A stretch of DNA of 64,000 nucleotides from NCBI GenBank assembly GCA_913055155.1, contig CAJXJR010000002.1, forward strand, positions 188,501 to 252,500, read 5' to 3'. Numbering within the stretch: position 1 is the first letter of the stretch; each line of letters begins with the position of its first letter. This document shows, in pieces, positions 8,174-23,301 of the stretch. Both the position numbers and the translations under genes were made by a program. Under the pieces are notes generated by a model. That model saw nothing but the letters and a program-made list of their open reading frames with translations, ran no database searches and had not been told where the DNA came from. Origin of the DNA: an uncultured Erythrobacter sp. Its GTDB lineage: Bacteria; Pseudomonadota; Alphaproteobacteria; Sphingomonadales; Sphingomonadaceae.

Positions 8174-8604
8174 ATAAAACTCCACCAAACCTTGTTATGT
8201 ATGTGCTCCTACTAACCAACCCGATGGCGAGGTCAAGCTTAAGTTCAACACTTTCGGCAGGTTGGCGTGTTTTTACAAGGGCAGGAGGTGTTCATCGTAA
8301 GTAGCTGTTATCAAAAATGTTCGCGCCGACCTCCCCCTTGCGCCCTAGAGATCAAGGCTTGGCACATCCTTGATGGGGTCGGCGTCAAGATTTGGTCGCG
8401 ATGACGCCCCAAAACGAATTCCTGATCCACTGAAACCCATGCTCTTATAACTTGGAGAGCCCGTCTTCGTCCGAGTTGCCGAAGCATCTAAGAGTTCCCG
8501 AGAAAGGGTGAAGGCCAAGAATACCGCTTGCCCCGGGGCGCAAAGGAATCGGTGGGTGCCACTAAGCTGGCAGCCAGTTAGATTGGCGCATGAGGCCAAA
8601 CGGG
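8174..8604. other. Intergenic region upstream of the autotransporter gene
   Basis: About 430 bp between the start of the autotransporter gene and the end of the DUF3237 gene, both on the minus strand. It must hold the autotransporter promoter. It is more A+T-rich near the autotransporter start (8180-8330). I see no convincing gene, hairpin terminator or operator in it. Confidence 0.6.
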
Positions 8605-9078
8605 TCAGGTCACGCGCCACACCCAAAGCTTGATTGAGTTGGCAAATCGCGCCCCTGAACAAATGAAGATCGACTTGTTGAGCCAATCATACTTGCCATC
8701 GGGCGCAATGAATTCGGGCACCGTGCGGAAATAGTATTCGCTCGGGTCAACTTCCTCGCCCGCCACCAGCCGCCGCATCACCTCCACCGGGCCGTGGCGC
8801 AGGCCCTTGTTGCGGATCTGGATCAGTTCGCCATCGTCGGTCTCGATGGCATACATGGCATCGGCCACGGTCACCCCGTCGTGCCGGGTCAGCTGCCAGT
8901 CGGCCGAACTGCCCATCAGCTTGCCAGAAATCCTGGGTCCTTTCACATAGCCGCCGGCTAGGATGGGGATGATCCGCCGCGTGCCGTCATAGGTCTCCCC
9001 GATCTGGCGCGGTTCTTCCAACTCGCCGCCAGCTTCATAGACGAATTCAAGGCCTGGTGGATCGGGCCGTTCACTCAT
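8605..9078 (-). CDS. DUF3237 family protein
   Basis: A 157-residue protein of the DUF3237 family, recognised by GTRRIIPILAGG near residue 28, the central Y-x-I-E-T-D-D-G-E motif, R-x-K-G-x-R-H-G, and the C-terminal SEYYFRT...WLNKSIF pattern. No signal peptide, so cytoplasmic. The biochemical role of the family is not established; members often sit beside oxidative aromatic-degradation genes. A clear GGGAGCAGGAC ribosome-binding site precedes ATG at 9078. It is the last gene of a minus-strand run behind the lignostilbene dioxygenase and the serine hydrolase, which suggests a part in handling products of stilbene cleavage or a related aromatic. A paralogue lies at 27092-27556. Confidence 0.85.
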   Translation of the reverse strand: MSERPDPPGLEFVYEAGGELEEPRQIGETYDGTRRIIPILAGGYVKGPRISGKLMGSSADWQLTRHDGVTVADAMYAIETDDGELIQIRNKGLRHGPVEVMRRLVAGEEVDPSEYYFRTVPEFIAPDGKYDWLNKSIFICSGARFANSIKLWVWRVT

Positions 9079-9225
9079 GTCCTGCTCCCGTTGTTGTTTT
9101 GCCTGCCTTCCTTAGGCAAGCCAGCCGCGCGCACCAAATCTAAACCGCTGGCTGCACCAGATCGACTGCGAACGGGGCTGCGCATTCCGGTGGAATGCCG
9201 CAGCCGGACGCTACATCGAGCTCGA

Positions 9226-10500
9226 TTAGCGAGGCGTGAGCGGCGTGTTCGCAACCTGCTCGAAATAGCTCGCCACCACGTCGTCCAGTTCCGCACCGGG
9301 CGGATAGTGGCTCAGCTTCACGATCACCGTGCGGCTTTGCGGGTGGACATATATGTATTGCCCGGCCAGTCCGATGGCGGAAAAGGCGCCGGGCTCGTTG
9401 CCCAGCTGCCAGGTCTGGAAGCCGTATCCGGGGCGCGGGCTGTCCGGGTCGAGCGGGCGCATGGCTGTCATCGCAGCAACCCAGCCTTCGGGCAGCACGC
9501 GCGTGCCCTGCATCATTCCGTCGTCCAGCATTAGCTGCCCCAACCGCGCGAAATCACGCAGCGTCGCGTTGAAGCCCATGCCCGCCAGAGACCGCCCGAC
9601 ACCTGGCGGTCCGTCCGCCAGCCAGAAGGCGTTGCGTTCCGCACCGATGGGTTGCCACAGCCGCTCGCTGGTCAGCCGCGCCAGCGGCACGCCGGTGGCA
9701 TTCTCCAGCACGCGGCCCAGCACGGCGGTGTCGAGCGTGGCGTAGTTGAAGCTTTCGCCCGGCGCCTCCCTGCGGCCCACCGCCATGCCGAAATCGGCAA
9801 AGCGCGCACGGTTGAGGACGATGGCGGTATCATGGATGCAGGCGGCAAGACTGGGGTTTGCGCCGAAATCGTAGCGTTCGACGATATCGACGCCAGAGCG
9901 CATTTCCAGCAGGTTGCGGATCGTCACTCCGTCATAGCCGCCGCCTGCCAGCGCTGGCCAGTAGCGCGTGGCCGGGTCGTCCAGCGATTCGATCTCGCCG
10001 CGTGCCAGTGCCTGCCCGACCAGCATGGCCACGATCGTCTTCGACATGGAAAAGCCAATATGGCGCTCCTCGGGATCGAAGCGATTGCGGTAGTCCTCGA
10101 ACACGATCTGCCCGTCGCGCAGCACCAGCAGGGCATCGGTATGGGTGGTCAGGGCGAAGGCCTGGTAGTCGCCAGGCATGGTGAAGCCGGCAGCCTCTGC
10201 CCAGGCACGCGGCTGCTCTGCTGCCGCAACGCGGCGATTGGCAAAGACCTCGCTCGCCTCTCGAAAGGTGAAGGAGTTCACCTCCGGATTGAGAAGCTGT
10301 CGTCGCATGGCGATCGTCGCGGGCGAAGGCTCGCGATAGGCAAGGTCCGGGCCCGTGGGTGCCGGGTCCAGTTGAGCCAGCCCCCGGCATCCCTCGGCCA
10401 CGTCCCATGCGCGCCAGGGCTCCGGCGCGCCCTCGTCCTGTGCCAATGTGGGGGCCGAAACCCCCAGCACGCCCAGCGCTGCAAGCGCGGCGCGGATCAT
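9226..10500 (-). CDS. Periplasmic serine hydrolase, class C beta-lactamase fold
   Basis: A 424-residue serine hydrolase of the beta-lactamase/esterase family (Pfam Beta-lactamase, family VIII-like esterases and 6-aminohexanoate-dimer hydrolases). A signal peptide (MIRAALAALGVLGVSAPTLAQ) sends it to the periplasm. The SxxK catalytic motif is GFSMSKTI near residue 155; a Y-A-T motif near residue 245 and GLAGQYIYV near residue 390 fit the other active-site blocks. Its ATG overlaps the stop of the upstream dioxygenase gene (ATGA), so the two are translationally coupled. A likely role is hydrolysis of an ester or amide of an aromatic compound before uptake; the substrate cannot be told from sequence. 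Confidence 0.85.
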   Translation of the reverse strand: MIRAALAALGVLGVSAPTLAQDEGAPEPWRAWDVAEGCRGLAQLDPAPTGPDLAYREPSPATIAMRRQLLNPEVNSFTFREASEVFANRRVAAAEQPRAWAEAAGFTMPGDYQAFALTTHTDALLVLRDGQIVFEDYRNRFDPEERHIGFSMSKTIVAMLVGQALARGEIESLDDPATRYWPALAGGGYDGVTIRNLLEMRSGVDIVERYDFGANPSLAACIHDTAIVLNRARFADFGMAVGRREAPGESFNYATLDTAVLGRVLENATGVPLARLTSERLWQPIGAERNAFWLADGPPGVGRSLAGMGFNATLRDFARLGQLMLDDGMMQGTRVLPEGWVAAMTAMRPLDPDSPRPGYGFQTWQLGNEPGAFSAIGLAGQYIYVHPQSRTVIVKLSHYPPGAELDDVVASYFEQVANTPLTPR

Positions 10501-11978
10501 GCCGGCTCGGCCACTTTCAGCCCGATATCCTCGCTGCGGGCAAAGTTGCCGTGCAGGCCGAAGCGCAGGCGGATGGGGATGTGGACGGTGGCCACCGGCC
10601 CTTTCTCGATATCCAGCGCATCGAAGATCAACAGGTCGGTGTTCCTGTTTTCAAGCCGGTTGCACAGCATCACAATCCAGCCGTCGCCTTCGGGCGCATC
10701 GGGTGTGCGCGGAATGAAGCAGGGTTCCTGCAGGCTTGAAACCGGGCCACACCACCAGTGCTTTTCGTCGCCGGTTTCGAGGTCTTTCAGGAACAGGCAG
10801 TTCATCAGGAACCCGCCGGCGCTGCCGCCTTTCAGTTCGCAGGGGCGGCTCATGTCCATTTCCAGACCCCAGGTGTAGCGGTTCTTCATGCCGGTGAAGC
10901 GATCGTCGATGCGCGGGAACTCGGATGCCGTCTCGGTCAGCGGCACGATTTCTTCGAACTCGTCGGTGTTGCTGGCCAAGTCCACGGTCCAGCGGGTGAG
11001 CTTGCTCATCGCCTGTGCCGGGTTGAAATCGGCACCGTGCACGTCGGGGAAGAAGGGGAACATGTTGTTCTCCGCTTCGGGCACCACGAAGTGCACCTTG
11101 CTGCCGTCTTGCCAGGCATTGACCACGTGGCTGGCAAAGCAGTTGTCGCGCTTGAACCAGCGGATGTCTTCCTGCTTCAGGTCATCCCGGCGCGGGATGA
11201 TGCCGAGGTATACGGGCTTGGTGGTGTCGAAGCCGAAGTGGGGCAGGCCCTTCTCCAGCCGTTCCCAGCTGCCGATCGATGGCACGACGTGCAGCACGAG
11301 GTAATCGGGCGTAATCGCGAAGTCGTGCATCATGCAGTAATAGGGGGTCTTGAACCACACTTCACGCACCAGCTCGTTGTCCGGGCTGATCTCCACCAGC
11401 GCGCAATCGTCGCTGCAGATGCCGCTGGCGGCGTAGCACAGCGCCACCATGTTGCCGGTCGCGGGATCGATCTTGGGGTGGGCGGTGAAGGTCTCGCTCT
11501 TCATCTTGCCGCCCCAGGTTTCGACCTTCTCGCGCTCCATCGTGACAGGGTCCATCACCAGCGAGGGGCTGTCTTCCTTCATCGCCCAAAGCTTGCCCGC
11601 GAAGACCCAGGCGTTGGTGTTGCCCGTTGCGCGGTAGGTGCCCTTGGTAGCGGGATCGTCCGTCAGCGGATTGCGATAGTGGCCCCACAGCGCGCGGCCC
11701 GCCTCGTTCTCCATCAACCAGCGATCGGTCTTGGCCCAGCGCTGGCGGAAATCGACCTGGCCATCATGGATGTGGAAGCGCGAGATCATCCCGTCGCCGT
11801 CGAAGGCAATCGAATCACCTAGCATCGGCGGGAACTGCGGATCGGGCTGCACGCGGAAGAATGCGCCGTCGATCTCTTTCGGGATCTCGCCCTCGTAGGC
11901 AAGGTCCTTGATATCTGCTTCAACGCGACTGGGGGTATTGAAGCCGGTGAAGGTGGGGGTGTCGGGAAATTGCGCCAT
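10497..11978 (-). CDS. Lignostilbene-alpha,beta-dioxygenase (carotenoid oxygenase family)
   Basis: A 493-residue non-haem iron dioxygenase that cleaves the central double bond of hydroxylated stilbenes with O2 to two aromatic aldehydes, for example lignostilbene to vanillin. ATG at 11978 has AAGGAGAGG upstream. The four iron-binding histidines are H167 (TAHPKID), H218 (MMHDFAIT), H284 (FASHVVNAW) and H476 (FGLHGNF). Residues F59, Y101 and K134 match, at the same numbers as I recall them, the pocket residues that hold the substrate 4-hydroxyl in LsdA and NOV1. This argues for a 4-hydroxystilbene substrate rather than a carotenoid. It heads the operon with the serine hydrolase and DUF3237 genes and is divergent from marR, its likely regulator. 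Symbol left empty because several isozymes exist. Confidence 0.92.
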   Translation of the reverse strand: MAQFPDTPTFTGFNTPSRVEADIKDLAYEGEIPKEIDGAFFRVQPDPQFPPMLGDSIAFDGDGMISRFHIHDGQVDFRQRWAKTDRWLMENEAGRALWGHYRNPLTDDPATKGTYRATGNTNAWVFAGKLWAMKEDSPSLVMDPVTMEREKVETWGGKMKSETFTAHPKIDPATGNMVALCYAASGICSDDCALVEISPDNELVREVWFKTPYYCMMHDFAITPDYLVLHVVPSIGSWERLEKGLPHFGFDTTKPVYLGIIPRRDDLKQEDIRWFKRDNCFASHVVNAWQDGSKVHFVVPEAENNMFPFFPDVHGADFNPAQAMSKLTRWTVDLASNTDEFEEIVPLTETASEFPRIDDRFTGMKNRYTWGLEMDMSRPCELKGGSAGGFLMNCLFLKDLETGDEKHWWCGPVSSLQEPCFIPRTPDAPEGDGWIVMLCNRLENRNTDLLIFDALDIEKGPVATVHIPIRLRFGLHGNFARSEDIGLKVAEPA

Positions 11979-11990
11979 CTTTGTCCTCTC

Positions 11991-12029
11991 CTTGCGGAAG
12001 ATTGTATGCTTTACTAACAAAACCGCAAG
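11991..12029. promoter_or_regulatory. Inverted repeat in the dioxygenase/marR divergent promoter
   Basis: The 69-bp gap between the divergent starts of the dioxygenase and marR holds perfect 7-bp arms CTTGCGG (11991-11997) and CCGCAAG (12023-12029) flanking an A+T-rich core. It is a candidate operator for the MarR protein controlling both directions. The inference rests on position and symmetry only. Confidence 0.4.
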
Positions 12030-12047
12030 ACAGACGAGAGCAGGACT

Positions 12048-12521
12048 TTGGCCCAAGCCGCATTGACCGAAAGCAAAACCGACGCGAACGAGGGTGGCGA
12101 TCCCGAATTCGGCCAGCTCGACGGCATCGTGGGCTTCCACATCCGCCTGGCGCATGGCGCCGTCTATCGCCATTTTACCGAGACATTCTCGGAGCTTGGC
12201 TTGACGCAAAAGCAGGTCAGCGTGCTGTGGCTCGTGGGCGAGAACCCCGGCGTCTCGCAAATCGAGCTGGGCAGCCGCCTGCGGATGGACCGGGCCACCA
12301 CCATGACCATCGTCAACCGCCTGCAGGAGCGCGGCTACCTGCGGCGCGAGAAGAGCAGCAGCGATGGGCGCAAGCAGGCGCTCCACCTAACCGCAGACGG
12401 CGAAGCGGCGCTAGAACAGGCCAAAAGCTGTATTGCCGAGCACGAAGCATGGCTAAAAAGCCGCTTCACACCACAAGAAGTCGAAAAACTGGTGGAAATG
12501 CTCGAGAGAATCCACGAATAG
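12048..12521 (+). CDS. MarR family transcriptional regulator
   Basis: A 157-residue winged-helix regulator. The start is TTG at 12048 with GAGCAGGA upstream. The MarR core spans about residues 40-140: LTQKQVSVLWLV, then the recognition helix region RMDRATTMTIVNRLQERGYL and the wing RREKSSSDGRKQALHLT. Members bind small aromatic ligands and release DNA. Its place divergent from the lignostilbene dioxygenase and upstream of an aromatic-acid transporter suggests that it senses a phenolic compound and controls both transcription units, including itself. Confidence 0.92.
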   Translation: MAQAALTESKTDANEGGDPEFGQLDGIVGFHIRLAHGAVYRHFTETFSELGLTQKQVSVLWLVGENPGVSQIELGSRLRMDRATTMTIVNRLQERGYLRREKSSSDGRKQALHLTADGEAALEQAKSCIAEHEAWLKSRFTPQEVEKLVEMLERIHE

Positions 12522-12551
12522 GGACCCTTCAGGGAGAAGGACAAAGTCAAT

Positions 12552-13925
12552 ATGGCCGGACCGACAAGCGGGGGCGCGAACCCCATCAATGTGATCAACG
12601 ACGGTGCCATGAACTGGCGCCAGTGGGCGGTAGTGGTGCTGATGGTGCTGCTGAACGCGCTCGACGGGTTCGACGTGCTTTCCAGCGCCTTTGCCGCGCC
12701 GGGTATTACGGCGGACTGGGGCATCCCGCGTAGCGAACTGGGCATCGTCCTTTCGGCAGAACTGGTAGGCATGGGCTTTGGCTCGGTGCTGCTGGGCGGC
12801 GCGGCGGACAAGTTCGGTCGCAAGAACACCATGATCGCCTGCCTCGTCTTGATGGCCATCGGTATGTGGATGGCCGGCCATGCCAATGGCGTAGGCGACA
12901 TGTTCGTATATCGCTTCATCACCGGAATCGGCATCGGCGGCATGCTGGCCGCCACCAACGCCGTTACGGCCGAAAGCACAAACAACAAGTGGCGCAAGGC
13001 CGCCATCGCGGTCTACGTCGCGGGCTATCCGTTGGGCGCGATCCTGGGCGGCATTGCCGCTTCAGAATGGCTGCTGGACACCTATGGCTGGCGCGGCGTG
13101 TTCGATTTCGGCGCTATCGTCACCGCGGCGCTGATCCCGGTTGTGTTCCTGGTGGTGCCGGAAACTGCTGCCTACCAGGCCGCCAAGAACAACCTTGCAG
13201 GCGTCAACAGGACGCTGCACGCCTTCGGCAAGCCGCCGATCGAGAACCTGCCTGCGGTGGATACCTCGGCAGCCAAGCCGAAGGTGACCGACATCCTGTC
13301 GAACCCGAAGCTGCGTCCGGTCACCCTGCTGCTGGCCTTCGGCTACATGTTCCACACCGTCACCTTCTACTACATCCTGAAATTCGCGGTGCAGATCGTG
13401 GCCGACTACCCGCCGGGCTACCCGCCCAGCGATGCCGCCACCGTGCTTACCTGGGCCAATGTCGGCGGCTTCTTCGGCAGCGCGCTTTTCGGCTTCGTGA
13501 TGGCGCGCCTGGGCATCAAGTGGCCGACCGCGCTGATGTTGCTGATCGGCTCTGTCGCAGTCATCAGCTTTGGCCTTGGCCGCGATACGCTGGATGGCTG
13601 GCAGTGGGCCACCATCCTCACCGGCTTCTTCACCAATGCCGCGATCAGCGGATACTATGCCGCCTTTGCGCGCGGCTTCCCCGCCTATGCCCGCGCCACC
13701 GGCACCGGCTTCGTGCTGGGGGTCGGTCGCCTTGGCGCGGCAGGCAGCCCGCTGATTGCCGGCGCGCTGTTTGCCTTGCTGGGCAACGATGAACTGCTGG
13801 TGGTTTCCACCATCATGGCCATGGGTTCGGTGATCTCGCTGATCCTGTTCCTGATGCTGCCCGAACGCGAAGGCGACGAACTGGTAGGCGCAGCAGACCT
13901 GCCCGCCGGTACGCCGCTCGACTGA
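12552..13925 (+). CDS. MFS transporter, aromatic acid:H+ symporter family
   Basis: A 457-residue inner-membrane permease with about 12 hydrophobic segments. The DGFD motif (38-41) in the first membrane helix and GAADKFGRK in the loop between helices 2 and 3 are signatures of the aromatic acid:H+ symporter (AAHS) family (PcaK, BenK, VanK types). A GGGAGAAGG ribosome-binding site precedes ATG at 12552, 30 bp after marR. It probably imports an aromatic acid related to stilbene cleavage products such as vanillate or 4-hydroxybenzoate; the exact substrate is not readable. frmA follows after 19 bp. Confidence 0.9.
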   Translation: MAGPTSGGANPINVINDGAMNWRQWAVVVLMVLLNALDGFDVLSSAFAAPGITADWGIPRSELGIVLSAELVGMGFGSVLLGGAADKFGRKNTMIACLVLMAIGMWMAGHANGVGDMFVYRFITGIGIGGMLAATNAVTAESTNNKWRKAAIAVYVAGYPLGAILGGIAASEWLLDTYGWRGVFDFGAIVTAALIPVVFLVVPETAAYQAAKNNLAGVNRTLHAFGKPPIENLPAVDTSAAKPKVTDILSNPKLRPVTLLLAFGYMFHTVTFYYILKFAVQIVADYPPGYPPSDAATVLTWANVGGFFGSALFGFVMARLGIKWPTALMLLIGSVAVISFGLGRDTLDGWQWATILTGFFTNAAISGYYAAFARGFPAYARATGTGFVLGVGRLGAAGSPLIAGALFALLGNDELLVVSTIMAMGSVISLILFLMLPEREGDELVGAADLPAGTPLD

Positions 13926-13944
13926 TATCTAGGAGAATCCTGAC

Positions 13945-15057
<1,113 letters not shown>

Positions 15058-15182
15058 GGTCCACCCCGCCAGGACCAAATTCATTCTTTCACATTGCTGA
15101 AAATTTCGGCTATGTGATGAAACCAAGAGAATCGCGCTCGGCGAGAGGTTGTCGTGCGCCCCATACGAGAGGACCAGATCGC

Positions 15183-15566
15183 ATGTTCAATCACGTGTTT
15201 GTCGGCACCAACGACATCGAAGCCAGCCGCAAGTTCTACGATGCCACGATGAAGGTTCTGGGCTTTGAAGGCCACCCGCTGCCGCACGGCACGGTCTACC
15301 CCAGCGAGAACGGTTCGTTCATCACCGCCAAGCCCGCCGACGGCGAAGCGGCGACCTGCATGAACGGCTTCACTTTCGGCTTCAAGGCGGCCGACTATGC
15401 CACGGTCGACGCCTGGTACGAGGCCGGCCTTGCCAACGGCGGCACCGACGAAGGCGCGCCGGGCTTCCGTCCCAGCTCGCCGGGCAACATGTACGGTGCC
15501 TACCTGCGCGACCCGGACGGCCACAAGATCTGCGCCTACACGCCCAACGTGGGCCCCAAGGAGTAA
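15183..15566 (+). CDS. VOC (glyoxalase/bleomycin-resistance fold) protein
   Basis: A 127-residue vicinal-oxygen-chelate protein: FNHVFVGTNDIEASRKFYDA at the N-terminus and GAYLRDPDGHKICAY at the C-terminus are the paired beta-alpha-beta-beta-beta signatures. GAGAGGA lies upstream of ATG at 15183. Cytoplasmic. VOC proteins of this size are glutathione- or metal-dependent isomerases, lyases or transferases. Its place between frmA and fghA suggests a glutathione-adduct or alpha-dicarbonyl substrate, but the reaction is unknown. The next gene is a paralogue. Confidence 0.88.
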   Translation: MFNHVFVGTNDIEASRKFYDATMKVLGFEGHPLPHGTVYPSENGSFITAKPADGEAATCMNGFTFGFKAADYATVDAWYEAGLANGGTDEGAPGFRPSSPGNMYGAYLRDPDGHKICAYTPNVGPKE

Positions 15567-15661
15567 GCATAAGCGGCCATTTTCCCGCCCGGACCGGCCA
15601 GGCCGGTCCGGCGGGGAACCGACGGCCTGCTGCTACCGTATATCCGGGGGAGACAGCGACA

Positions 15662-16051
15662 ATGTACAGTCACATGATGGTCGGCTCGAACGACCTCGAA
15701 AAGTCCCGGACGTTCTACGATGCGGTGTTCACCGCGATCGGCGGGCGCAAGGGCTCGATGGATCCAAAGGGGCGGCTGATATACGCGCACAAGGATTCGC
15801 TGTTCCTGGTCACCAAGCCGATCAATGGCGAACCGGCCTGCGTCTCCAACGGCGGCACCATCGGCTTTGCCATGGACAGCCCCGAACAGGCCGATGCCTG
15901 GCACGCAGCAGGCGTGGCCGCGGGCGGCACGCCAATCGAAGACCCGCCCGGCCCGCGAGTGTCGAACGGGCGCAAGCTTTACCTGGCCTACCTGCGTGAT
16001 CCCGATGGCCACAAGCTGTGCGCCCTGCACATGCTGGGCGCGGAAGGATGA
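15662..16051 (+). CDS. VOC family protein, second copy
   Basis: A 129-residue VOC protein related to the preceding one (MYSHMMVGSNDLEKSRTFYDA; YLAYLRDPDGHKLCALH). A GGGGGAG site precedes ATG at 15662. The stop lies just upstream of the preferred start of fghA, so it is co-transcribed with the formaldehyde genes. Proteins of this subgroup have been annotated loosely as lactoylglutathione lyases; whether it acts on S-hydroxymethyl- or S-formyl-glutathione or another aldehyde adduct cannot be told. It shares the YLRDPDGHK core with its neighbour but differs in the middle, so a recent tandem duplication is unlikely. Confidence 0.88.
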   Translation: MYSHMMVGSNDLEKSRTFYDAVFTAIGGRKGSMDPKGRLIYAHKDSLFLVTKPINGEPACVSNGGTIGFAMDSPEQADAWHAAGVAAGGTPIEDPPGPRVSNGRKLYLAYLRDPDGHKLCALHMLGAEG

Positions 16052-16053
16052 AC

Positions 16054-16887
16054 ATGGAAACAGTCAGCGAAACCAAGTGCTTCGGGGGCAATCAGGGCGT
16101 CTACACCCACGATAGCGAGGCGACCGGCACGCCGATGACCTTCCAGGTTTTCGTGCCCGAGCACACGCCCGGCGACAAGCTGCCGGTGCTGTGGTGGCTT
16201 TCCGGCCTGACCTGCACGCACGAAAACGCGATGACCAAGTGTCACTACCACCAGGCCTGTGCCGAACACGGCATTATCCTGGTCGGCCCGGACACCTCCC
16301 CGCGCGGAGAAGGCGTGCCCGACGACGAGGCCTACGATTTCGGCCAGGGCGCCGGGTTCTACGTCAATGCCACGCAGGACCCATGGGCAAAGCACTTCCA
16401 CATGCGCCGCTATGTGGAAGAGGAACTGCCTGCGATGGTGGCGGAGAATTTCCCGGTCGACATGGATCGCCAGGCAATCTCGGGCCACTCGATGGGCGGC
16501 CACGGCGCGCTGACCGTGTCCTTGCGCAATCCCGGTCGTTTCCGCTCGACCAGTGCCTTCTCCCCGATCGTCAGCCCGCTCAACTGCCCGTGGGGCGAAA
16601 AGGCGCTGACAGGCTATATCGGCGACGACAAGGACGCATGGCGCGAATACGATGCCTGCGCCCTGATCGAAGACGGCGCCCGGCTGGGTAACCTGTTGGT
16701 GGACCAGGGCCGGGCCGACAATTTCCTCGACGAACAGCTGAAGACGTGGCTGCTGGAAGAGGCCGTACGCAAGGCGGGCATGGATGCGACGATCCGCATG
16801 CAGGAAGGCTACGACCATTCCTACTTCTTCGTCTCCACCTTCATCGCCGACCATATCAAATGGCACGCAGAAAGGCTCAAGGCATGA
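16054..16887 (+). CDS. fghA: S-formylglutathione hydrolase
   Basis: A 277-residue alpha/beta-hydrolase (esterase D family) that hydrolyses S-formylglutathione to formate and glutathione. The nucleophile is S146 in GHSMGGHGAL, with the acid probably in VDQGRADNF and the base in GYDHSYFF. ATG at 16054 is preferred since GGAAGG lies 6 bases upstream; ATG at 16048 in the same frame is too close to that site. It follows the second VOC gene directly and its stop overlaps fdsG (ATGA), so formate made here is passed to the formate dehydrogenase from the same transcript. Confidence 0.95.
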   Translation: METVSETKCFGGNQGVYTHDSEATGTPMTFQVFVPEHTPGDKLPVLWWLSGLTCTHENAMTKCHYHQACAEHGIILVGPDTSPRGEGVPDDEAYDFGQGAGFYVNATQDPWAKHFHMRRYVEEELPAMVAENFPVDMDRQAISGHSMGGHGALTVSLRNPGRFRSTSAFSPIVSPLNCPWGEKALTGYIGDDKDAWREYDACALIEDGARLGNLLVDQGRADNFLDEQLKTWLLEEAVRKAGMDATIRMQEGYDHSYFFVSTFIADHIKWHAERLKA

Positions 16888-17312
16888 GCGACAAGAGCGA
16901 AATCCTGGGCGAGATCATCGCCCGCCACCACCATCGCGAGGGGCCGCTACTGCCGATCCTCAACGACGTGCAGGCCGAACTCGGCTGTGTCGATGCGGAA
17001 AGCGAAGCGCTGATCGCCAAGGGCCTGAACCTTTCCCGCGCCGACGTGCACGGCGTGGTCAGCTTCTACCATGACTACAAGACCGAGGCCGACGCCCGCC
17101 CGGTAGTGCAGGTGTGCCGCGCAGAGGCGTGCAAGGCGCGCGGCGTGGAAGCCATCATCGATAACGCCACCAGGGCTGCCGGAGAGCGCGTGAAGATCGA
17201 GACGGTCTATTGCCTCGGCCTGTGCAGCGCCGGGCCTGCCGCGCGCACGGGTGACGACCTGCATATCCGCCTCGACGCCGAAGGCATCACCAAGCTGGTA
17301 GAAGACGCATGA
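16884..17312 (+). CDS. fdsG: NAD-dependent formate dehydrogenase, gamma subunit
   Basis: A 142-residue NuoE-like subunit carrying one [2Fe-2S] cluster. The four cysteines are seen as VCRAEAC and YCLGLC. The helical N-terminal part (ILGEIIARHHHREGPLLPIL) matches the NuoE/FdsG thioredoxin-like family. It passes electrons between the FMN and the Fe-S chain of the soluble molybdenum formate dehydrogenase FdsABG. The start overlaps the fghA stop, and its own stop overlaps the fdsB start, both by ATGA. Confidence 0.93.
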   Translation: MSDKSEILGEIIARHHHREGPLLPILNDVQAELGCVDAESEALIAKGLNLSRADVHGVVSFYHDYKTEADARPVVQVCRAEACKARGVEAIIDNATRAAGERVKIETVYCLGLCSAGPAARTGDDLHIRLDAEGITKLVEDA

Positions 17313-18868
17313 CCAAGGTTCGCATTTCCGACGACGCCCTTGCCCGCGCAGGCGGGGCAGACAAGCTGGCCGCAGCCTTCGAAGCCAAGGGCTGCGAGGT
17401 GCAGCGCACCTCCAGCTGGGGCATGCAGTGGCTGGAACCGCTGGTGGAGATCGATGGCAAGGGCTTCGGCCCCGCGACGCTGACCGACGTCGACGCCATC
17501 CTCGATGGCACCAGCGACAAGGCCATCGGCCTGATCGAGGAGCACCCCTTCATCGCCGGGCAGACGCGCTTTACCTTTGCGCGCGCGGGCAAGACCCGTC
17601 CGCTGAGCCTGGAAGACTACGAAGCTACCGGCGGCTGGGCGGGCCTGAAGCGCGCCCGCCAGATCGGCAGCGAAGCAATTGTCGAAGAAGTGAAGGAATC
17701 CGGCCTGCGCGGTCGCGGCGGCGCGGGCTTCCCCACCGGGATCAAGTGGGACACCGTGCGCAAGGCGGAAGCCGACCAGAAGTACATCGTGTGCAACGCC
17801 GACGAAGGCGACAGCGGCACCTTTGCCGACCGCATGGTGATGGAAGGCGATCCCTTCCAGCTGATCGAAGGCATGGCCATCGCCGGCGAAGCCGTGGGGG
17901 CGACACGCGGCTATGTCTACCTGCGCAGCGAATACCCTGATGCCATCCGCAAGATGAACGCGGCGATCGAGCTGTGCGCGGATATCATCGCACCGTTCGT
18001 GTGCGAAGTGCGCGTGGGGGCGGGCGCCTATGTCTGCGGCGAGGAAACCAGCCTGCTGAACAGCCTCGAAGGCAAGCGCGGCGAAGTGCGCGCGAAGCCG
18101 CCGTTGCCCGCTCTGGAAGGCTTCCTTGGCAAGCCGACGGTCGTCAACAACGTGCTGAGCCTTGCTGCTGTCCCGCACATCCTCACGGAAGGCGGCGCTG
18201 CGGCATACAAGGATGTGGGCTTCGGGCGTTCGCGCGGCACCATGCCGATCCAGCTGGCCGGTAACATCAAGCACGGCGGCCTGTACGAGATCGGCTTTGG
18301 CGTGACGCTGGGCGACCTCGTGAACACGATCGGCGGCGGCACGGCATCGGGCCGTCCGGTAAAGGCGGTGCAGGTGGGTGGCCCGCTGGGCGCCTATATC
18401 CACCCCGACCAGTTTGACATCGTGTTCGACTATGAGACCTTTACCGAGGCCGACGCGCTGATCGGCCATGCGGGCGTGACCGTGTTCGACGACACGGCGG
18501 ATATGCTGGGCATGGCGCGCTTCGCGATGGAATTCTGCGCGGCGGAAAGCTGCGGCAAGTGCACGCCATGCCGCATCGGCGCAGTGCGCGGAGTGGAAAT
18601 CCTCGACCGGATCAAGGCCGGCGGTCGCAAGCGCGACCGGCTGGAACTGATGCCGCAGATGCATAACACGCAGAAGGACCAGGGCCGCGATGCAGGCGAC
18701 GAGATCGGCCTGCTGACAGACCTGTGCGAGACGATGAAGTTCGGCTCGCTCTGCGCGCTGGGCGGCTTCACACCCTACCCGGTGATGAGCGCGCTCAAGC
18801 ACTGGCCGGAAGACTTCACCCGCAACCCCGAACTGGTCGAGAAGGCCATGTCGGAGCCTGCCGAATGA
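17309..18868 (+). CDS. fdsB: NAD-dependent formate dehydrogenase, beta subunit
   Basis: A 519-residue NuoF-like flavoprotein that binds FMN and NAD+ and carries a [4Fe-4S] cluster. The N-terminal 120 residues form a NuoE-type thioredoxin-like domain; then come the glycine-rich FMN/NAD segments (GLRGRGGAGFPTG, NADEGDSGTFADR, GAGAYVCGEETSLLNSLEG). The cluster cysteines are C415, C418, C421 (ESCGKCTPCRIG) and C482 (SLCALGG). It reduces NAD+ with electrons from formate oxidised at FdsA. Length is usual for the family. Confidence 0.95.
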   Translation: MTKVRISDDALARAGGADKLAAAFEAKGCEVQRTSSWGMQWLEPLVEIDGKGFGPATLTDVDAILDGTSDKAIGLIEEHPFIAGQTRFTFARAGKTRPLSLEDYEATGGWAGLKRARQIGSEAIVEEVKESGLRGRGGAGFPTGIKWDTVRKAEADQKYIVCNADEGDSGTFADRMVMEGDPFQLIEGMAIAGEAVGATRGYVYLRSEYPDAIRKMNAAIELCADIIAPFVCEVRVGAGAYVCGEETSLLNSLEGKRGEVRAKPPLPALEGFLGKPTVVNNVLSLAAVPHILTEGGAAAYKDVGFGRSRGTMPIQLAGNIKHGGLYEIGFGVTLGDLVNTIGGGTASGRPVKAVQVGGPLGAYIHPDQFDIVFDYETFTEADALIGHAGVTVFDDTADMLGMARFAMEFCAAESCGKCTPCRIGAVRGVEILDRIKAGGRKRDRLELMPQMHNTQKDQGRDAGDEIGLLTDLCETMKFGSLCALGGFTPYPVMSALKHWPEDFTRNPELVEKAMSEPAE

Positions 18869-18878
18869 GGACTGGCTC

Positions 18879-19409
18879 GTGATCCTGGGCGCGGTCCTGG
18901 CCGGCGGCAAGTCCTCACGCTTCGGCAGCGACAAGGCGCTGGCGGAACTGGACGGTCGCACGCTGATCGCGCGCGCGGTGGATACGCTTTCTGGTTTTTG
19001 CGAATACGTGATCGTGGTGGGCCGCGAACTCGCGCCCGCCCCGACCATTCCCGACTGGCCCCGACCCGGCATGGGTCCACTGGGCGGCATCGCCGCTGCC
19101 CTGCGCTACGCCGAGGACGAGGATTACGAAAGCGTACTGACCTGTGGGGTGGATTCGGTGGCCCTGCCGCAAACGCTGCTGGCAGACCTCTCCCCGCCTC
19201 CGGCATACCTTGAAAATCAGCCCGTGATCGGGCATTGGAAAAGCAGTAACGCATCGCTCGTTTCGGCCATCCTCCAGAGTGAAGGACGCCATTCGATGCT
19301 CGCATTCGCAAAGGCCGCCAGGGCGCGGGCCGTGAAATGCACTGATGCACCAGCAAACATCAACACACCCGCAGATCTTGCGGCGATGGAGCAAGCCCAT
19401 GGGATATGA
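18879..19409 (+). CDS. mobA: Molybdenum cofactor guanylyltransferase-like protein
   Basis: A 176-residue nucleotidyltransferase. The start is GTG at 18879 with GAGGA upstream. The signature LAGGKSSRFGSDKAL is the GTP-binding loop of MobA, and GMGPLGGIAAAL and the CGVDS segment match the MobA Mg/GTP motifs. MobA adds GMP to molybdopterin, giving the bis-MGD cofactor that FdsA needs. It sits between fdsB and fdsA and overlaps the fdsA start, so the cofactor enzyme is made with its client. The usual D-x-P metal motif reads GVDS here, a small departure. A related MobA-like cofactor nucleotidyltransferase is the alternative. Confidence 0.85.
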   Translation: MILGAVLAGGKSSRFGSDKALAELDGRTLIARAVDTLSGFCEYVIVVGRELAPAPTIPDWPRPGMGPLGGIAAALRYAEDEDYESVLTCGVDSVALPQTLLADLSPPPAYLENQPVIGHWKSSNASLVSAILQSEGRHSMLAFAKAARARAVKCTDAPANINTPADLAAMEQAHGI

Positions 19410-22254
19410 ACCCCAAAAGGATTTCGGCACCCCCGCAGTGGAGTCGGAAGATAAAGTCACCCTGACCATCGACGGCCGCGAAGTCACCGTGCCCGCCGGC
19501 ACCAGCGTGATGCGCGCCGCAAGCGAGAGCGGCGGCCATATCCCCAAGCTGTGCGCCACCGACAACGTCAAGGCCTTTGGCTCGTGCCGCCTGTGCCTGG
19601 TGGAGATCGAGGGTGCGCGCGGCACTCCTGCCAGCTGCACCACCCCGGTGGCCGAAGGCATGGTGGTCAAGACGCAGACCCCGCGGCTGGAAAAGCTGCG
19701 CCGCGGCGTGATGGAGCTGTACATCTCGGATCACCCGCTGGACTGCCTCACCTGCTCCGCCAACAACGACTGCGAACTGCAGGACGAAGCCGCCGCCGTG
19801 GGCCTGCGCGACGTGCGTTATGGCTATGAAGGCGCCAACCACCTGGGCACCACGCCCGATGTCTCCAACCCCTATTTCCTGTTCGCGCCCGACAAGTGCA
19901 TCGTCTGCAGCCGCTGCGTGCGTGCCTGTGGCGAAGTGCAGGGCACCTTTGCGCTGACCGTGGACGGGCGCGGTTTTGCCAGCGTGATCAGCGCCGGGCA
20001 GGACGAAGACAATTTCCTCTCTTCCGAATGCGTTTCCTGTGGCGCCTGTGTGCAGGCCTGCCCCACCAGCGCGCTGATGGAAAAGAGCGTGAAGGAACAC
20101 GGCAAGCCGGAACGCGCTGTCGTCACCACTTGCGCATATTGCGGCGTGGGCTGCACCTTCCGCGCAGAGATGAAGGGCGAACAGCTGGTGCGTATGGTGC
20201 CCTACAAGGACGGCAAGGCCAACCGCGGCCACAGCTGCGTGAAGGGCCGCTTCGCCTATGGGTATGCCAACCACCAGGATCGCATCACCAAGCCGATGAT
20301 ACGCGAGAAGATCACCGATCCCTGGCGCGAAGTCAGCTGGGAAGAGGCGCTCGAGTTCACCAGCAACAAGATCAACGCGATCAAGGCCGAGCACGGCGCC
20401 AGGGCGCTGGGTGGCATTACCTCCAGCCGCTGCACCAACGAGGAGACCTTCCTCGTGCAGAAGCTGATCCGTTCGGTTTTCGGTTCCAACAACACCGATA
20501 CCTGCGCGCGCGTTTGTCACTCGCCCACCGGCTATGGCCTGAAGACGACCTTCGGCACCTCGGCAGGCACGCAGGACTTTGACAGCGTGCAGCATACCGA
20601 CGTGGCCCTGGTGATCGGCGCCAACCCGACCGACGGCCACCCCGTCTTCGCCAGCCGCCTGAAGAAGCGCCTGCGCGAAGGGGCCAAGCTGATCGTGATC
20701 GACCCGCGCCGCATCGACCTGGTGCGCAGCCCGCATGTCGAGGCCGCGCATCACCTGCCGCTGCAGCCCGGCACCAACGTGGCCGTGCTCACCGCAATGG
20801 CGCATGTAATCGTCACCGAAGGGCTGGAGAACCGCAAGTTCATCGAGGAACGCTGCGAGATCGACGCCTACGAGGAATGGGCGCGCTTCGTTGCCGAGGA
20901 ACGCCACAGCCCGGAAGTGCTGGAAGCCGTGACCCGCGTTCCCGCCGAAGACCTGCGCGCCGCCGCGCGCCTCTATGCCACGGGCGGCAACGGCGCGATC
21001 TACTACGGCCTCGGCGTGACCGAGCACTCGCAGGGTTCCTCCACCGTGATGGCGATTGCCAACCTCGCCATGGTGACGGGCAACATCGGTCGCAAGGGCG
21101 TGGGCGTGAACCCGCTGCGCGGCCAGAACAACGTGCAGGGCGCCTGCGACATGGGCTCCTTCCCGCACGAACTGCCCGGCTATCGCCACCTGTCGGACGA
21201 CGCCACGCGCGAACTGTTCGAGAAGGACTGGGGCGTTCAACTGGACCCGGAGCCGGGCCTGCGCATCAACAACATGCTCGATGCCGCCGTGGATGGCAGC
21301 TTCAAGGCGATCTACATTCAGGGTGAGGACATTCTGCAGTCCGATCCCAACACCCAGCACGTGGCCGATGGCCTTTCGGCGATGGACTGCGTGATCGTGC
21401 ACGATCTCTTCCTCAACGAGACCGCCAACTACGCCCACGTGTTCCTGCCGGGCTCCACCTTCCTGGAGAAGAACGGCACCTTCACCAATGCCGAACGTCG
21501 CATCCAGCCGGTGCGCAAGGTGATGGAGCCGGCCAACGGCTATGAAGACTGGCAGGTCACCCAACTGCTGGCCAATGCGCTGGGTGCGGAATGGAACTAT
21601 ACCCACCCGAGCGAGATCCTCGACGAGATCGCCCGCCTCACCGGCAGCTTTGCCGGCGTTTCGTGGGACATGCTGAACGAGCGCGGCAGCGTGCAGTGGC
21701 CGGTGAACGAGAAGCATCCGGACGGCTCGCCCGTCATGCACATGGAAGGCTTCGTGCGCGGCAAGGGCCTGTTCGTGGTGACCGACTATGTCCCCACCGA
21801 CGAAAAGACCGGCCCGCGCTTCCCGCTGCTGCTGACCACCGGTCGCATCCTCAGCCAGTACAACGTCGGCGCGCAGACGCGGCGCACGGCCAACACCGTG
21901 TGGCACGAGGAAGACCTGCTGGAAATGCACCCGGTCGATGCCGAAAACCGCGGGCTGAAGGATGGCGACTGGACCAAGCTGGCCAGCCGCACGGGTGAAA
22001 CCACGCTGCGCGTGAAGGTCACCGATCGCGTGGCACCGGGCGTGGTCTACACCACCTTCCACCACCCGGCGACGCAGGCCAACGTGGTCACCACAGACTT
22101 CTCCGACTGGGCCACCAACTGCCCCGAATACAAGGTGACGGCCGTGCAGGTGACGCCCAGCAACGGCCCGACCGACTGGCAGGAAGACTACCAGGAGCTG
22201 ACCGAGCGCAGCCGCCGCATCGCGGGCGAAGATTCGATGGAGCCGGCTGAATGA
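19399..22254 (+). CDS. fdsA: NAD-dependent formate dehydrogenase, alpha (molybdenum) subunit
   Basis: A 951-residue catalytic subunit that oxidises formate to CO2 at a bis-MGD molybdenum centre. ATG at 19399 has GGAG upstream and overlaps the end of mobA. The order is a [2Fe-2S] ferredoxin domain (CATDNVKAFGSCRLC), a His/Cys cluster region (DCLTCSANNDCEL), two [4Fe-4S] clusters (CIVCSRCVRAC and CVSCGACVQACP), a further cluster (CAYCGVGC), then the molybdopterin oxidoreductase domain. C373 in ARVCHSPT is the predicted molybdenum ligand, and the following His is the catalytic one in the family. The size fits FdsA of Rhodobacter and Cupriavidus. Confidence 0.96.
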   Translation: MGYEPQKDFGTPAVESEDKVTLTIDGREVTVPAGTSVMRAASESGGHIPKLCATDNVKAFGSCRLCLVEIEGARGTPASCTTPVAEGMVVKTQTPRLEKLRRGVMELYISDHPLDCLTCSANNDCELQDEAAAVGLRDVRYGYEGANHLGTTPDVSNPYFLFAPDKCIVCSRCVRACGEVQGTFALTVDGRGFASVISAGQDEDNFLSSECVSCGACVQACPTSALMEKSVKEHGKPERAVVTTCAYCGVGCTFRAEMKGEQLVRMVPYKDGKANRGHSCVKGRFAYGYANHQDRITKPMIREKITDPWREVSWEEALEFTSNKINAIKAEHGARALGGITSSRCTNEETFLVQKLIRSVFGSNNTDTCARVCHSPTGYGLKTTFGTSAGTQDFDSVQHTDVALVIGANPTDGHPVFASRLKKRLREGAKLIVIDPRRIDLVRSPHVEAAHHLPLQPGTNVAVLTAMAHVIVTEGLENRKFIEERCEIDAYEEWARFVAEERHSPEVLEAVTRVPAEDLRAAARLYATGGNGAIYYGLGVTEHSQGSSTVMAIANLAMVTGNIGRKGVGVNPLRGQNNVQGACDMGSFPHELPGYRHLSDDATRELFEKDWGVQLDPEPGLRINNMLDAAVDGSFKAIYIQGEDILQSDPNTQHVADGLSAMDCVIVHDLFLNETANYAHVFLPGSTFLEKNGTFTNAERRIQPVRKVMEPANGYEDWQVTQLLANALGAEWNYTHPSEILDEIARLTGSFAGVSWDMLNERGSVQWPVNEKHPDGSPVMHMEGFVRGKGLFVVTDYVPTDEKTGPRFPLLLTTGRILSQYNVGAQTRRTANTVWHEEDLLEMHPVDAENRGLKDGDWTKLASRTGETTLRVKVTDRVAPGVVYTTFHHPATQANVVTTDFSDWATNCPEYKVTAVQVTPSNGPTDWQEDYQELTERSRRIAGEDSMEPAE

Positions 22255-22535
22255 GCAAGGACACGCAGGCAACGCTGTTGCGCTTTGCCAACCAGATCGC
22301 CAAGAACTTCGTGGCCATCGGCCATGACAAGGCGGTGCTGGCAACGGCGGACCATATCGAGAGCTTCTGGGACCCCCGCATGAAGAACGCGATCTTCACT
22401 GGCGACCGTTCGGGGCTGGATCCGATCGCCGAAGAAGCAATCGAACACCTGCTGGAGAAGGGCCATCCGGGCACGCAAACCCGTGCCACCGATTTCTCCA
22501 AGCACGGCGACCTGCACAATTCGGATGCCGGATAG
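22251..22535 (+). CDS. fdsD: Formate dehydrogenase delta subunit
   Basis: A 94-residue protein of the FdsD family: IAKNFVAIGHDKAVLATADHI followed by FWDPRMK is the family core. It is a small accessory subunit needed for full activity in other FdsABG systems. It overlaps fdsA by ATGA and its 3' end overlaps fdhD by 11 bp, so the whole unit is tightly coupled. No membrane segment. Confidence 0.93.
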   Translation: MSKDTQATLLRFANQIAKNFVAIGHDKAVLATADHIESFWDPRMKNAIFTGDRSGLDPIAEEAIEHLLEKGHPGTQTRATDFSKHGDLHNSDAG

Positions 22536-23301
22536 ACCGGTCCAGTTCGCTGCCGACGGCAGCGTGACAACAATCGAGCGCGATTGGGTTCCCGAAGTCC
22601 CGGTCGCGCTCGAATACAATGGGCTGTCCTATGCGGTGATGATGGCCACGCCATCGGACCTTGAGGATTTCGCCCGCGGCTTTGCGCTGACCGAAGGACT
22701 GGCGAAAACACCTGCCGATGTCACCGATATTGCCGTGGTCGAAGTCGAAAAGGGCTGGATCGCGCGCACGCAGCTGACCGGGCTCGGCATCGAGAAGCTG
22801 ACCGAGCGCGTGCGCACCCGCGTGGCGGAATCGAGCTGCGGGCTGTGCGGGATCGAGAACCTCGAGGCGGTCAGCACCCCGCTTCCCAGGGTCGCGGCGC
22901 ACAAGGCGCTGGACCCGCAAGCGATATTCACCGCCCTCGCCGCCTTGCGCGACCACCAGCCGCTGACCAGGGCAACCGGCGCGGCCCATGCCGCCGCCTT
23001 CTGCGCGATGGACGGCACGATCCTCCACGCCCGCGAAGACGTGGGGCGGCACAATGCCATGGACAAGCTGGTCGGTGCCCTCGCCGCTGCGGGGCAGGAC
23101 GCCGCAAACGGCTTCATCCTCTCCAGCGCGCGCTGTTCCTACGAAATCGTCGAGAAGGCCGTGCGCGCCGGGGCGCATACGCTGGTCACTATCTCGTTGC
23201 CCACATCGATGGCGGTGGAACGGGCGAAAGCGGCAGGCCTCAGCCTGTGGTGCCTGGCGCGCGATGACAGCGTGCTGTGCGTGAATTCGCCTACCGACTA
23301 A
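22525..23301 (+). CDS. fdhD: Sulfurtransferase/cofactor chaperone FdhD (FdsC)
   Basis: A 258-residue FdhD family protein that delivers sulfur to, and protects, the Mo cofactor of formate dehydrogenase before insertion. The start is ATG at 22525, inside fdsD. The conserved cysteine loop is SSCGLCGIEN; REDVGRHNAMDKLVG and LSSARCSYEIVEKA are the other family blocks. In Fds operons the gene is called fdsC. It ends the plus-strand C1 operon; its last 11 bp overlap the end of metW on the opposite strand. Confidence 0.95.
   Translation: MPDRPVQFAADGSVTTIERDWVPEVPVALEYNGLSYAVMMATPSDLEDFARGFALTEGLAKTPADVTDIAVVEVEKGWIARTQLTGLGIEKLTERVRTRVAESSCGLCGIENLEAVSTPLPRVAAHKALDPQAIFTALAALRDHQPLTRATGAAHAAAFCAMDGTILHAREDVGRHNAMDKLVGALAAAGQDAANGFILSSARCSYEIVEKAVRAGAHTLVTISLPTSMAVERAKAAGLSLWCLARDDSVLCVNSPTD

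What the first reader, a model, noticed from the sequence alone, without database searches (positions are those of the whole stretch)
8605..23301. Lignostilbene cleavage linked to a full formaldehyde-to-CO2 pathway
The dioxygenase has the iron histidines (167, 218, 284, 476) and the 4-hydroxyl pocket residues F59, Y101 and K134 of true lignostilbene dioxygenases. Divergent from it lie an aromatic-acid transporter and frmA, fghA, fdsGBAD and fdhD. In sphingomonads lignostilbenes arise by loss of formaldehyde from beta-1 and beta-5 lignin dimers, so a joint locus would process both products. The linkage of the two halves into one response is inference.
Basis: partly seen in the sequence, partly recalled or inferred. 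Interest (0 to 1): 0.7.

Follow-up and report, generated by a model that had tools for sequence, protein, structure and literature searches.

The report
Lignin-dimer cleavage wired to formaldehyde oxidation
This bacterium carries, in one neighbourhood and apparently under one repressor, the enzymes that break lignin dimers and the enzymes that burn off the formaldehyde which that breakdown releases.

Summary
The genes are real and correctly named. The dioxygenase is an LsdD/NOV1-type lignostilbene dioxygenase; the operon opposite it encodes FrmA, FghA, FdsGBAD, MobA and FdhD, and no second FrmA, FghA or FdsA passed threshold in this genome. A conserved DesR-type operator separates it from lsdD. 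The formaldehyde-releasing side (pcfL, ferD, ligW) lies 6-9 kb left of the window. Operator-like sites also precede pcfL, ldpA and ligM. The order MarR-MFS-frmA-fghA-fdsG-fdsB-mobA is intact in 30 of 30 fds-linked loci, while the other flank varies. In 5 of 32 genomes where frmA is unlinked from lsdD, frmA carries its own operator; in 13 genomes without lsdD it never does. Best reading: one aromatic-responsive repressor couples dimer cleavage with oxidation of its formaldehyde. Biochemistry and regulator are published separately; the shared operon and the frmA/pcfL/ldpA operators I did not find in print. No expression data exist for this organism, and the effector (vanillate or stilbene) is open.

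The parts
8605..9078 (-). DUF3237 protein, recurrent neighbour of lsdD; role unknown
   Evidence: PF11578, 145 bits; within 10 kb of the lsdD end in 26 of 30 fds-linked loci
9226..10500 (-). beta-lactamase-fold serine hydrolase, 4 bp overlap with lsdD; role unknown
   Evidence: PF00144; within 600 bp after lsdD in 11 of 30 fds-linked loci
10497..11978 (-). lsdD, lignostilbene dioxygenase (LsdD/NOV1 type), 493 aa
12001..12021 (.). predicted DesR/Saro_0803-type operator; contains GTATGCTTTACTAAC, 11 of 15 identical to the SYK-6 DesR site IR-R
   Evidence: PMC6888825
11991..12029 (.). outer inverted repeat CTTGCGG/CCGCAAG flanking the operator; the minus strand reads TTGCGG-N16-TACAAT, a possible lsdD promoter
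   Evidence: promoter reading is by eye, the strict consensus scan found none
12048..12521 (+). desR/Saro_0803-type MarR repressor gene, 157 aa, TTG start
   Evidence: NF053777 250.5 bits, cut-off 200; ligand- and DNA-contact residues
12552..13925 (+). aromatic acid:H+ symport family MFS transporter
   Evidence: TIGR00895, 278 bits, below cut-off
13945..15057 (+). frmA, S-(hydroxymethyl)glutathione dehydrogenase
   Evidence: TIGR02818; only match at E<=1e-150 in the genome
15183..15566 (+). VOC/glyoxalase-fold protein 1
   Evidence: PF00903
15662..16051 (+). VOC/glyoxalase-fold protein 2
   Evidence: PF00903
16048..16887 (+). fghA, S-formylglutathione hydrolase
   Evidence: TIGR02821
16884..17312 (+). 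fdsG, formate dehydrogenase gamma subunit
   Evidence: best family NF004638 (PRK05988), 149 bits, below cut-off 198
17309..18868 (+). fdsB, formate dehydrogenase beta subunit (NuoF-like)
   Evidence: TIGR01959, below cut-off; position
18879..19409 (+). mobA, molybdenum cofactor guanylyltransferase
   Evidence: TIGR02665, below cut-off
19399..22254 (+). fdsA, formate dehydrogenase alpha subunit
   Evidence: TIGR01591, 914 over 666 bits; only match over cut-off in the genome
22251..22535 (+). fdsD, formate dehydrogenase delta subunit
   Evidence: PF11390
22525..23301 (+). fdhD, sulfurtransferase for formate dehydrogenase
   Evidence: TIGR00129, 174 over 141 bits

Best explanation
The locus is a feed-forward catabolic and detoxification unit of lignin-dimer breakdown. 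A DesR/Saro_0803-type MarR repressor binds one operator between lsdD and its own gene and shuts off both sides: lsdD, and the operon desR-MFS-frmA-VOC-VOC-fghA-fdsGB-mobA-fdsAD-fdhD. Its operator-like sites also precede pcfL (same contig, 9 kb left of the window), ldpA and ligM on other contigs. When an aromatic effector appears (a stilbene, or vanillate), repression is lifted. PcfL and LdpA then turn beta-5 and beta-1 dimers into a stilbene plus formaldehyde. LsdD cleaves the stilbene to vanillin-type aldehydes, and FrmA, FghA and Fds burn the formaldehyde to CO2 with gain of NADH. The cell thus anticipates formaldehyde from its aromatic co-products. Shown by sequence here: gene content, order, conservation, operator-like sites. 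Shown by others in relatives: DesR binding and vanillate release, Saro_0803 binding and resveratrol release, formaldehyde release by PcfL, formaldehyde build-up without FdhA. Inferred: that all of this operates together in this organism.
For: (1) Regulator identity: NF053777 equivalog; the four resveratrol-pocket residues F30/F43/F47/W61 and K55, R82, R91, D106, R108, K109, Q110 match those reported for Saro_0803, A87 is T. SYK-6 desR is the gene next to lsdD, 60% identical. (2) Operator: 77 of 80 lsdD loci have the site with at most 3 mismatches; the SYK-6 copy contains IR-R, needed for DesR binding. The same pattern run on SYK-6 gave 5 hits, 3 of them equal in sequence to the published DesR sites IR-R, IR-M and IR-B; the reversed-pattern control there also gave 5. 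(3) In this genome, sites lie before lsdD|marR, pcfL, ldpA, ligM and the lig operon, 5 of 8 distinct places (11 rows); the reversed-pattern control gave 1. (4) Linkage: of 80 named loci (79 genomes), 39 have intact frmA directly after MFS, 5 are cut by the contig end, 4 too short, 31 without, 1 with a remnant. (5) The order MarR-MFS-frmA-fghA-fdsG-fdsB-mobA is kept in 30 of 30 fds-linked loci, while the window's hydrolase follows lsdD directly in 11 of 30. (6) In 13 genomes without the regulator over cut-off and without any LsdD relative above 34% identity, frmA has no MarR, aromatic MFS or fds within the 15 kb held and no operator near it, 0 of 13. (7) Where frmA is unlinked from lsdD, 5 of 32 genomes have an operator 26-76 bp upstream of frmA. 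(8) In N. aromaticivorans fdhA is among the DC-A candidates from RNA-Seq plus RB-TnSeq, and its deletion raises extracellular formaldehyde.
Against: 31 of 80 lsdD loci have no frmA within the DNA held (up to 10 kb), and 27 of 32 unlinked frmA genes examined show no operator, so coupling is not universal. frmA is present in 138 of 149 family genomes, so it also has a life without lsdD. One regulator genome (G058) has regulator and MFS but no lsdD match. In SYK-6 the fds genes are convergent with the MFS, not in the DesR operon. pcfL lacks the site in 8 of 25 evaluable loci. No expression, binding or enzyme data exist for this organism. Orthology of the pcfL copy to Saro_0796 rests on position and 40% identity to the presumed LdpA; the Saro sequence itself was not compared. 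Published DesR effectors are vanillate and syringate, published Saro_0803 effector is resveratrol, so the signal is unresolved.
Confidence: 0.7

Rival explanations
1. The formaldehyde operon mainly serves one-carbon units from methoxyl groups and general formaldehyde stress; a vanillate-sensing DesR-type repressor controls it together with O-demethylation, and the link to stilbene cleavage is secondary.
For: SYK-6 DesR responds to vanillate and syringate and controls ligM-metF-ligH (PMC6888825). An operator-like site lies before ligM in this genome. Five Sphingobium-type loci have fds, but no frmA, near lsdD.
Against: LigM passes the methyl group to tetrahydrofolate, not to formaldehyde (PMC6888825). 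The sites before pcfL and ldpA tie the same motif to the two formaldehyde-releasing lyases. In N. aromaticivorans the candidates rise on DC-A relative to vanillin.
Confidence: 0.35
2. Mere inheritance of neighbours: lsdD-marR-MFS landed next to a housekeeping frmA-fghA operon in an ancestor, with no functional coupling.
For: In lsdD-free genomes 4 of 13 frmA loci have metW/metX beyond fghA, the genes that follow fdhD in the window, so the aromatic block was probably joined to an old frmA site. Many relatives lack the linkage.
Against: 5' order intact in 30 of 30 while the 3' side varies; MFS-frmA gaps of 8-174 bp in 45 loci, partial frmA included; five relocated frmA genes carry the operator; three linked ones have an extra site before frmA.
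Confidence: 0.12
3. The dioxygenase acts chiefly on other substrates such as resveratrol-type stilbenes or vinylphenols, so formaldehyde is not its stoichiometric partner.
For: [quoted passage not shown]
Against: pcfL-ferD-ligW lies in the same neighbourhood, and an lsdD deletion of N. aromaticivorans accumulates the beta-5 stilbene.
Confidence: 0.12

Closest known systems
Novosphingobium aromaticivorans pcfL-ferD-ligW-lsdD region (Saro_0796-0803) with unlinked fdhA, fghA and formate dehydrogenase (PMC11323797)
   Same: Orthologous enzymes by position and similarity, same divergent lsdD|MarR arrangement, same chemistry; formaldehyde oxidation shown there to matter during growth with DC-A
   Different: There FdhA is Saro_0874, the hydrolase Saro_2822 and the formate dehydrogenase Saro_0732-0735, by locus number all away from lsdD; here they form one operon headed by the MarR gene
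DesR regulon of Sphingobium SYK-6 (PMC6888825)
   Same: Same regulator position beside lsdD, same operator type, ligM as a target, a tie to one-carbon metabolism
   Different: SYK-6 DesR was tested on desB, ligM, desR and desA, with C1 genes metF-ligH; here glutathione-dependent formaldehyde oxidation and formate dehydrogenase are in the regulator's own operon and pcfL/ldpA carry sites
Saro_0803-nov1 system (PMC10046596)
   Same: Orthologous repressor with the same pocket and DNA-contact residues (except A87T), site over the -10 region of lsdD
   Different: Only the nov1 promoter was studied in the sections read; no link to formaldehyde genes is made there

Membership tests
LsdD/NOV1 lignostilbene dioxygenase | Four iron histidines | tested here: met
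   H167, H218, H284, H476
LsdD/NOV1 lignostilbene dioxygenase | F59, Y101, K134 pocket residues | tested here: met
   but 3 of 5 family members of this genome have them
LsdD/NOV1 lignostilbene dioxygenase | High similarity and same gene context as SYK-6 lsdD | tested here: met
   75% to L045, L045 N-terminus equals 6XM6, same divergent MarR
LsdD/NOV1 lignostilbene dioxygenase | Cleavage of lignostilbenes | not testable with these tools
   needs enzyme assay
DesR/Saro_0803 MarR repressor | Equivalog score over the curated cut-off | tested here: met
   NF053777 250.5 over 200
DesR/Saro_0803 MarR repressor | Residues needed for ligand and DNA binding in Saro_0803 | tested here: met
   11 of the 12 positions checked identical; A87 is T
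DesR/Saro_0803 MarR repressor | IR-type operator between regulator and lsdD | tested here: met
   11 of 15 with IR-R; 1 match in the window, none in 100 shuffles
DesR/Saro_0803 MarR repressor | Release by vanillate or resveratrol | not testable with these tools
   needs EMSA
Glutathione-dependent formaldehyde oxidation (FrmA-FghA) | FrmA and FghA equivalogs | tested here: met
   TIGR02818 and TIGR02821 over cut-off
Soluble NAD-dependent formate dehydrogenase FdsGBAD | Alpha, beta, gamma and delta subunits plus FdhD | tested here: met
   TIGR01591, PF11390 and TIGR00129 pass; G and B assigned below equivalog cut-offs and by position
PcfL gamma-formaldehyde lyase (gene left of window, C2:179433-180179) | NTF2/SnoaL fold family, moderate similarity to LdpA, position by ferD and ligW | tested here: met
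   40% to presumed SYK-6 LdpA (paper reports 44% for PcfL to LdpA)
PcfL gamma-formaldehyde lyase (gene left of window, C2:179433-180179) | Formaldehyde release from phenylcoumarans | not testable with these tools
   needs enzyme assay

The most novel reading that the evidence does not exclude
A single repressor uses the aromatic co-product of deformylation (stilbene or vanillate) as a proxy for formaldehyde. It induces, in one regulon, the formaldehyde-releasing lyases (pcfL, ldpA), the stilbene dioxygenase and the complete formaldehyde-to-CO2 pathway. Selection has kept the wiring either by operon fusion or by giving a relocated frmA block its own operator.
Probability: 0.5. Interest if true: 0.6.

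Novelty: new variant of a known kind. Interest (0 to 1): 0.5.

Why it matters
Deformylating lyases release a toxic one-carbon compound in step with each dimer opened. In the papers I saw, its removal was tied to dimer breakdown only through an unlinked gene (fdhA) in one strain. Here a defined operator-repressor circuit can be tested directly. In my view it would also matter for engineering lignin funnelling, where formaldehyde must be removed. It also joins two separately named regulators, DesR and Saro_0803, into one orthologous family.

Tried and rejected
F59/Y101/K134 as proof of lignostilbene specificity: rejected, 3 of 5 paralogues have them. Stilbene versus vanillate as effector from pocket residues: not decidable, because SYK-6 DesR and the window protein share F30, F43, F47 and W61. 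An operator before frmA in every unlinked genome: not found, 27 of 32 lack one. A strict sigma-70 scan found no promoter in 10400-23600 (0 found, 1.9 expected in shuffles); of 6 terminator-like sites (10.0 expected) none lies on the plus strand within 12048-23301. Sites before rmuC and at a poly(A)-polymerase-type gene are probably chance. A Green Chem 2025 paper on an unusual SYK-6 repressor of dimer catabolism was seen only as a reference and the LdpA structure paper is not held; whether either bears on this is unknown. No structure prediction was run.

Limits of the survey: the 80 named loci are the best 80 of 219 relatives, so they lean to close relatives; L027 and L066 come from one genome. 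The count of 24 family genomes with the regulator over cut-off (16 with frmA within 2 kb, 6 not, 2 undetermined in fragmented assemblies) was read by eye. Of the 32 lsdD loci without intact linked frmA, 30 were searched for frmA elsewhere (L028 and L050 were not); 5 further frmA rows of that search were not fetched. One of the 30 (L027's genome) was dropped from the unlinked count on checking, because its frmA is the linked copy of L066. The operator matrix was trained on lsdD|marR sites, so counts for those two families are by construction, and divergent neighbours share a site. Gene calls in loci are my own codon-usage calls, not curated.
Full report
What is there. The window lies at G000:C2:188501-252500 of a 3.1 Mb genome. 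On the minus strand are lsdD (10497-11978), a serine hydrolase of beta-lactamase fold overlapping it by 4 bp, and a DUF3237 protein. On the plus strand, starting 69 bp from the lsdD start codon, run a MarR gene (12048-12521), an aromatic-acid symport family MFS transporter, frmA, two VOC genes, fghA, fdsG, fdsB, mobA, fdsA, fdsD and fdhD. Most overlap or lie within 30 bp of each other; the two larger gaps are 125 and 95 bp on either side of the first VOC gene. FrmA (E<=1e-150), FghA and the formate dehydrogenase alpha subunit (over cut-off) each occur once in this genome, so this operon is its whole glutathione-dependent formaldehyde route at those thresholds.

The MarR protein scores 250.5 against NF053777, 'Saro_0803 family transcriptional regulator' (cut-off 200). 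Saro_0803 represses nov1 (lsdD) and is released by resveratrol (PMC10046596; abstract, passages and sections 3.2, 3.4, 3.5 read). In SYK-6 the same position beside lsdD (SLG_12860) is held by SLG_12870, which is DesR: a repressor of ligM, desB and itself, released by vanillate and syringate (PMC6888825; abstract, the Results sections on regulator identification, DesR binding and effectors, the Discussion and passages read). The window protein is 60% identical to the SYK-6 one. It keeps the four Saro_0803 ligand residues and the DNA-binding residues examined there, except A87, which is T.

The operator. The lsdD|MarR intergenic regions of the loci share a block around TTTGTTAGTAAAGCATACAAT; 77 of 80 loci have it with at most 3 mismatches. 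Of the three exceptions, L027 and L028 have no MarR gene beside lsdD and L039 has a 4-mismatch copy. The SYK-6 copy contains IR-R, the sequence needed for DesR binding. A pattern derived from the lsdD sites, run over SYK-6, gave five hits; three are equal in sequence to the published DesR sites IR-R, IR-M and IR-B, although the reversed-pattern control also gave five there. In the window's own genome the pattern has 8 distinct places (11 rows; control 1): lsdD|MarR; 16 bp before pcfL; 23 bp before ldpA; 47 bp before ligM (NF047885, 814 over 580); before an operon with ligA and ligB; before rmuC; at a poly(A)-polymerase-type gene; and one weak place whose genes were not examined. Across the loci, sites above 8 bits within 200 bp upstream were found for MarR 60 of 60, LSD 56 of 81, the SDR family c8 26 of 42, the MFS c17 24 of 27 and PcfL/LdpA c13 23 of 32, against 17 among the other 1136 of 1378 upstream regions. 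By gene, pcfL had it in 17 of 25 evaluable and ldpA in 6 of 7.

The source of formaldehyde. Left of the window on the same contig lie, in order, an MFS gene, pcfL (C2:179433-180179), ferD, ligW, an unassigned gene, a second MFS and a benzoylformate decarboxylase-type enzyme. This resembles the order of the Saro_0795-0800 region as inferred from relatives and the published locus numbers. ldpA lies on contig C4, 73% identical to the SYK-6 protein at the position expected for SLG_12650. Papers show that PcfL releases formaldehyde and that a strain without FdhA accumulates it on DC-A; the five candidates from RNA-Seq and RB-TnSeq are, as I read the text, pcfL, lsdD, ferD, ligW and fdhA (PMC11323797; passages and two sections read). 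In that strain fdhA, fghA and the formate dehydrogenase are, by locus number, unlinked from lsdD.

Is the linkage more than chance? Of 80 named loci, 39 have intact frmA directly behind the MFS, 5 are cut there by the contig end, 4 are too short, 31 have none and 1 (L059) keeps a 38-residue remnant. fds follows on the same strand in 30, lies in opposite orientation in 5 (Sphingobium-type loci including SYK-6) and is absent in 45, 12 of which hold less than 6 kb on that side. In all 30, the order MarR-MFS-frmA-fghA-fdsG-fdsB-mobA is intact on one strand, whereas the window's hydrolase directly follows lsdD in 11 of 30. In 149 genomes of the family, 24 have the regulator over cut-off; frmA lies within 2 kb in 16, elsewhere in 6, undetermined in 2, while frmA itself occurs in 138 of 149. 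In 13 genomes with frmA but without the regulator over cut-off, none has an LsdD relative above 34% identity (5 have no match at E<=1e-20). There frmA has no MarR, aromatic MFS or fds within the 15 kb held and no site near it; fghA is in the stretch in 9 of 13. In 4 of them metW-metX lie beyond fghA, as they follow fdhD in the window, so the aromatic block seems to have been joined to an old frmA-fghA site.

A natural test. Among 32 genomes with lsdD but frmA elsewhere (29 plus G051, G003 and G076), 5 have the operator 26-76 bp upstream of frmA: G051, G003 and the genomes of L047, L055 and L071. In four of these the moved unit is the block frmA-VOC-(fghA)-fdsG-fdsB-(mobA)-fdsA, fghA and mobA not being found in G051. 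In G003 the surroundings resemble those of lsdD-free genomes that have no site. Three linked loci (L011, L054, L078) have an extra site before frmA. Against this, 27 of the 32 have none. For scale, sites above 14 bits within 600 bp were found for 0 of 155 genes in the lsdD-free regions, and for 73 of 1111 genes outside the five site-bearing families in the lsdD loci, 60 of which are the MFS whose 600 bp reach across MarR to the lsdD site.

How it most likely works. An aromatic effector frees the repressor; both sides of the promoter region fire; lyases, dioxygenase and the formaldehyde-to-CO2 operon rise together. The effector is unresolved: vanillate for DesR, resveratrol for Saro_0803; the DC-A over vanillin induction in N. 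aromaticivorans leans to a dimer or stilbene there. Shared control in this organism is inference from sequence; the steps in relatives are shown by others.

Verdict. The kind of pathway and the kind of regulator are known. The operon fusion with the complete formaldehyde route, and the predicted operators before pcfL, ldpA and relocated frmA, I did not find in print in searches of an open-access library that lacks most subscription journals.

Noticed in passing
G000:C2:185609-187180 (L130:17109-18680), just left of the window: A benzoylformate decarboxylase-type enzyme (NF005485, 630 over 493 bits) sits between the pcfL-ferD-ligW cluster and lsdD; its cluster (c18) holds 28 gene calls across the loci. 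Its substrate is unknown; TPP enzymes of this type can also join aldehydes (recalled), which would be striking next to formaldehyde and vanillin.
   Followed up: partly
window 1103-8188 (-): A 2361-residue repetitive Ala/Asp-rich surface protein with an autotransporter-like region, a long run of prolines and an OmpA-like C-terminus (reading by eye) lies between the two halves of the dimer locus.
   Followed up: no
window 8605-10500 (-): DUF3237 and a beta-lactamase-fold hydrolase recur beside lsdD in many loci; neither has a role in the dimer pathways that I saw described.
   Followed up: partly
window 12048-12521 and L045: DesR (SYK-6) and Saro_0803 (Novosphingobium), published under different names with different effectors, are by position and sequence family the same orthologous regulator.
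   Followed up: yes
L059:7936-8049 (-): A 38-residue fragment of frmA (84% identical) remains right behind the MFS gene in a Novosphingobium locus without intact frmA there, a trace of lost linkage.
   Followed up: partly
G000:C2:74503-76404 and C2:97459-99946: Two other carotenoid-oxygenase paralogues each sit next to a SnoaL/NTF2-type gene, the same enzyme pairing as LdpA or PcfL with LSD; they may be further dimer pathways.
   Followed up: no
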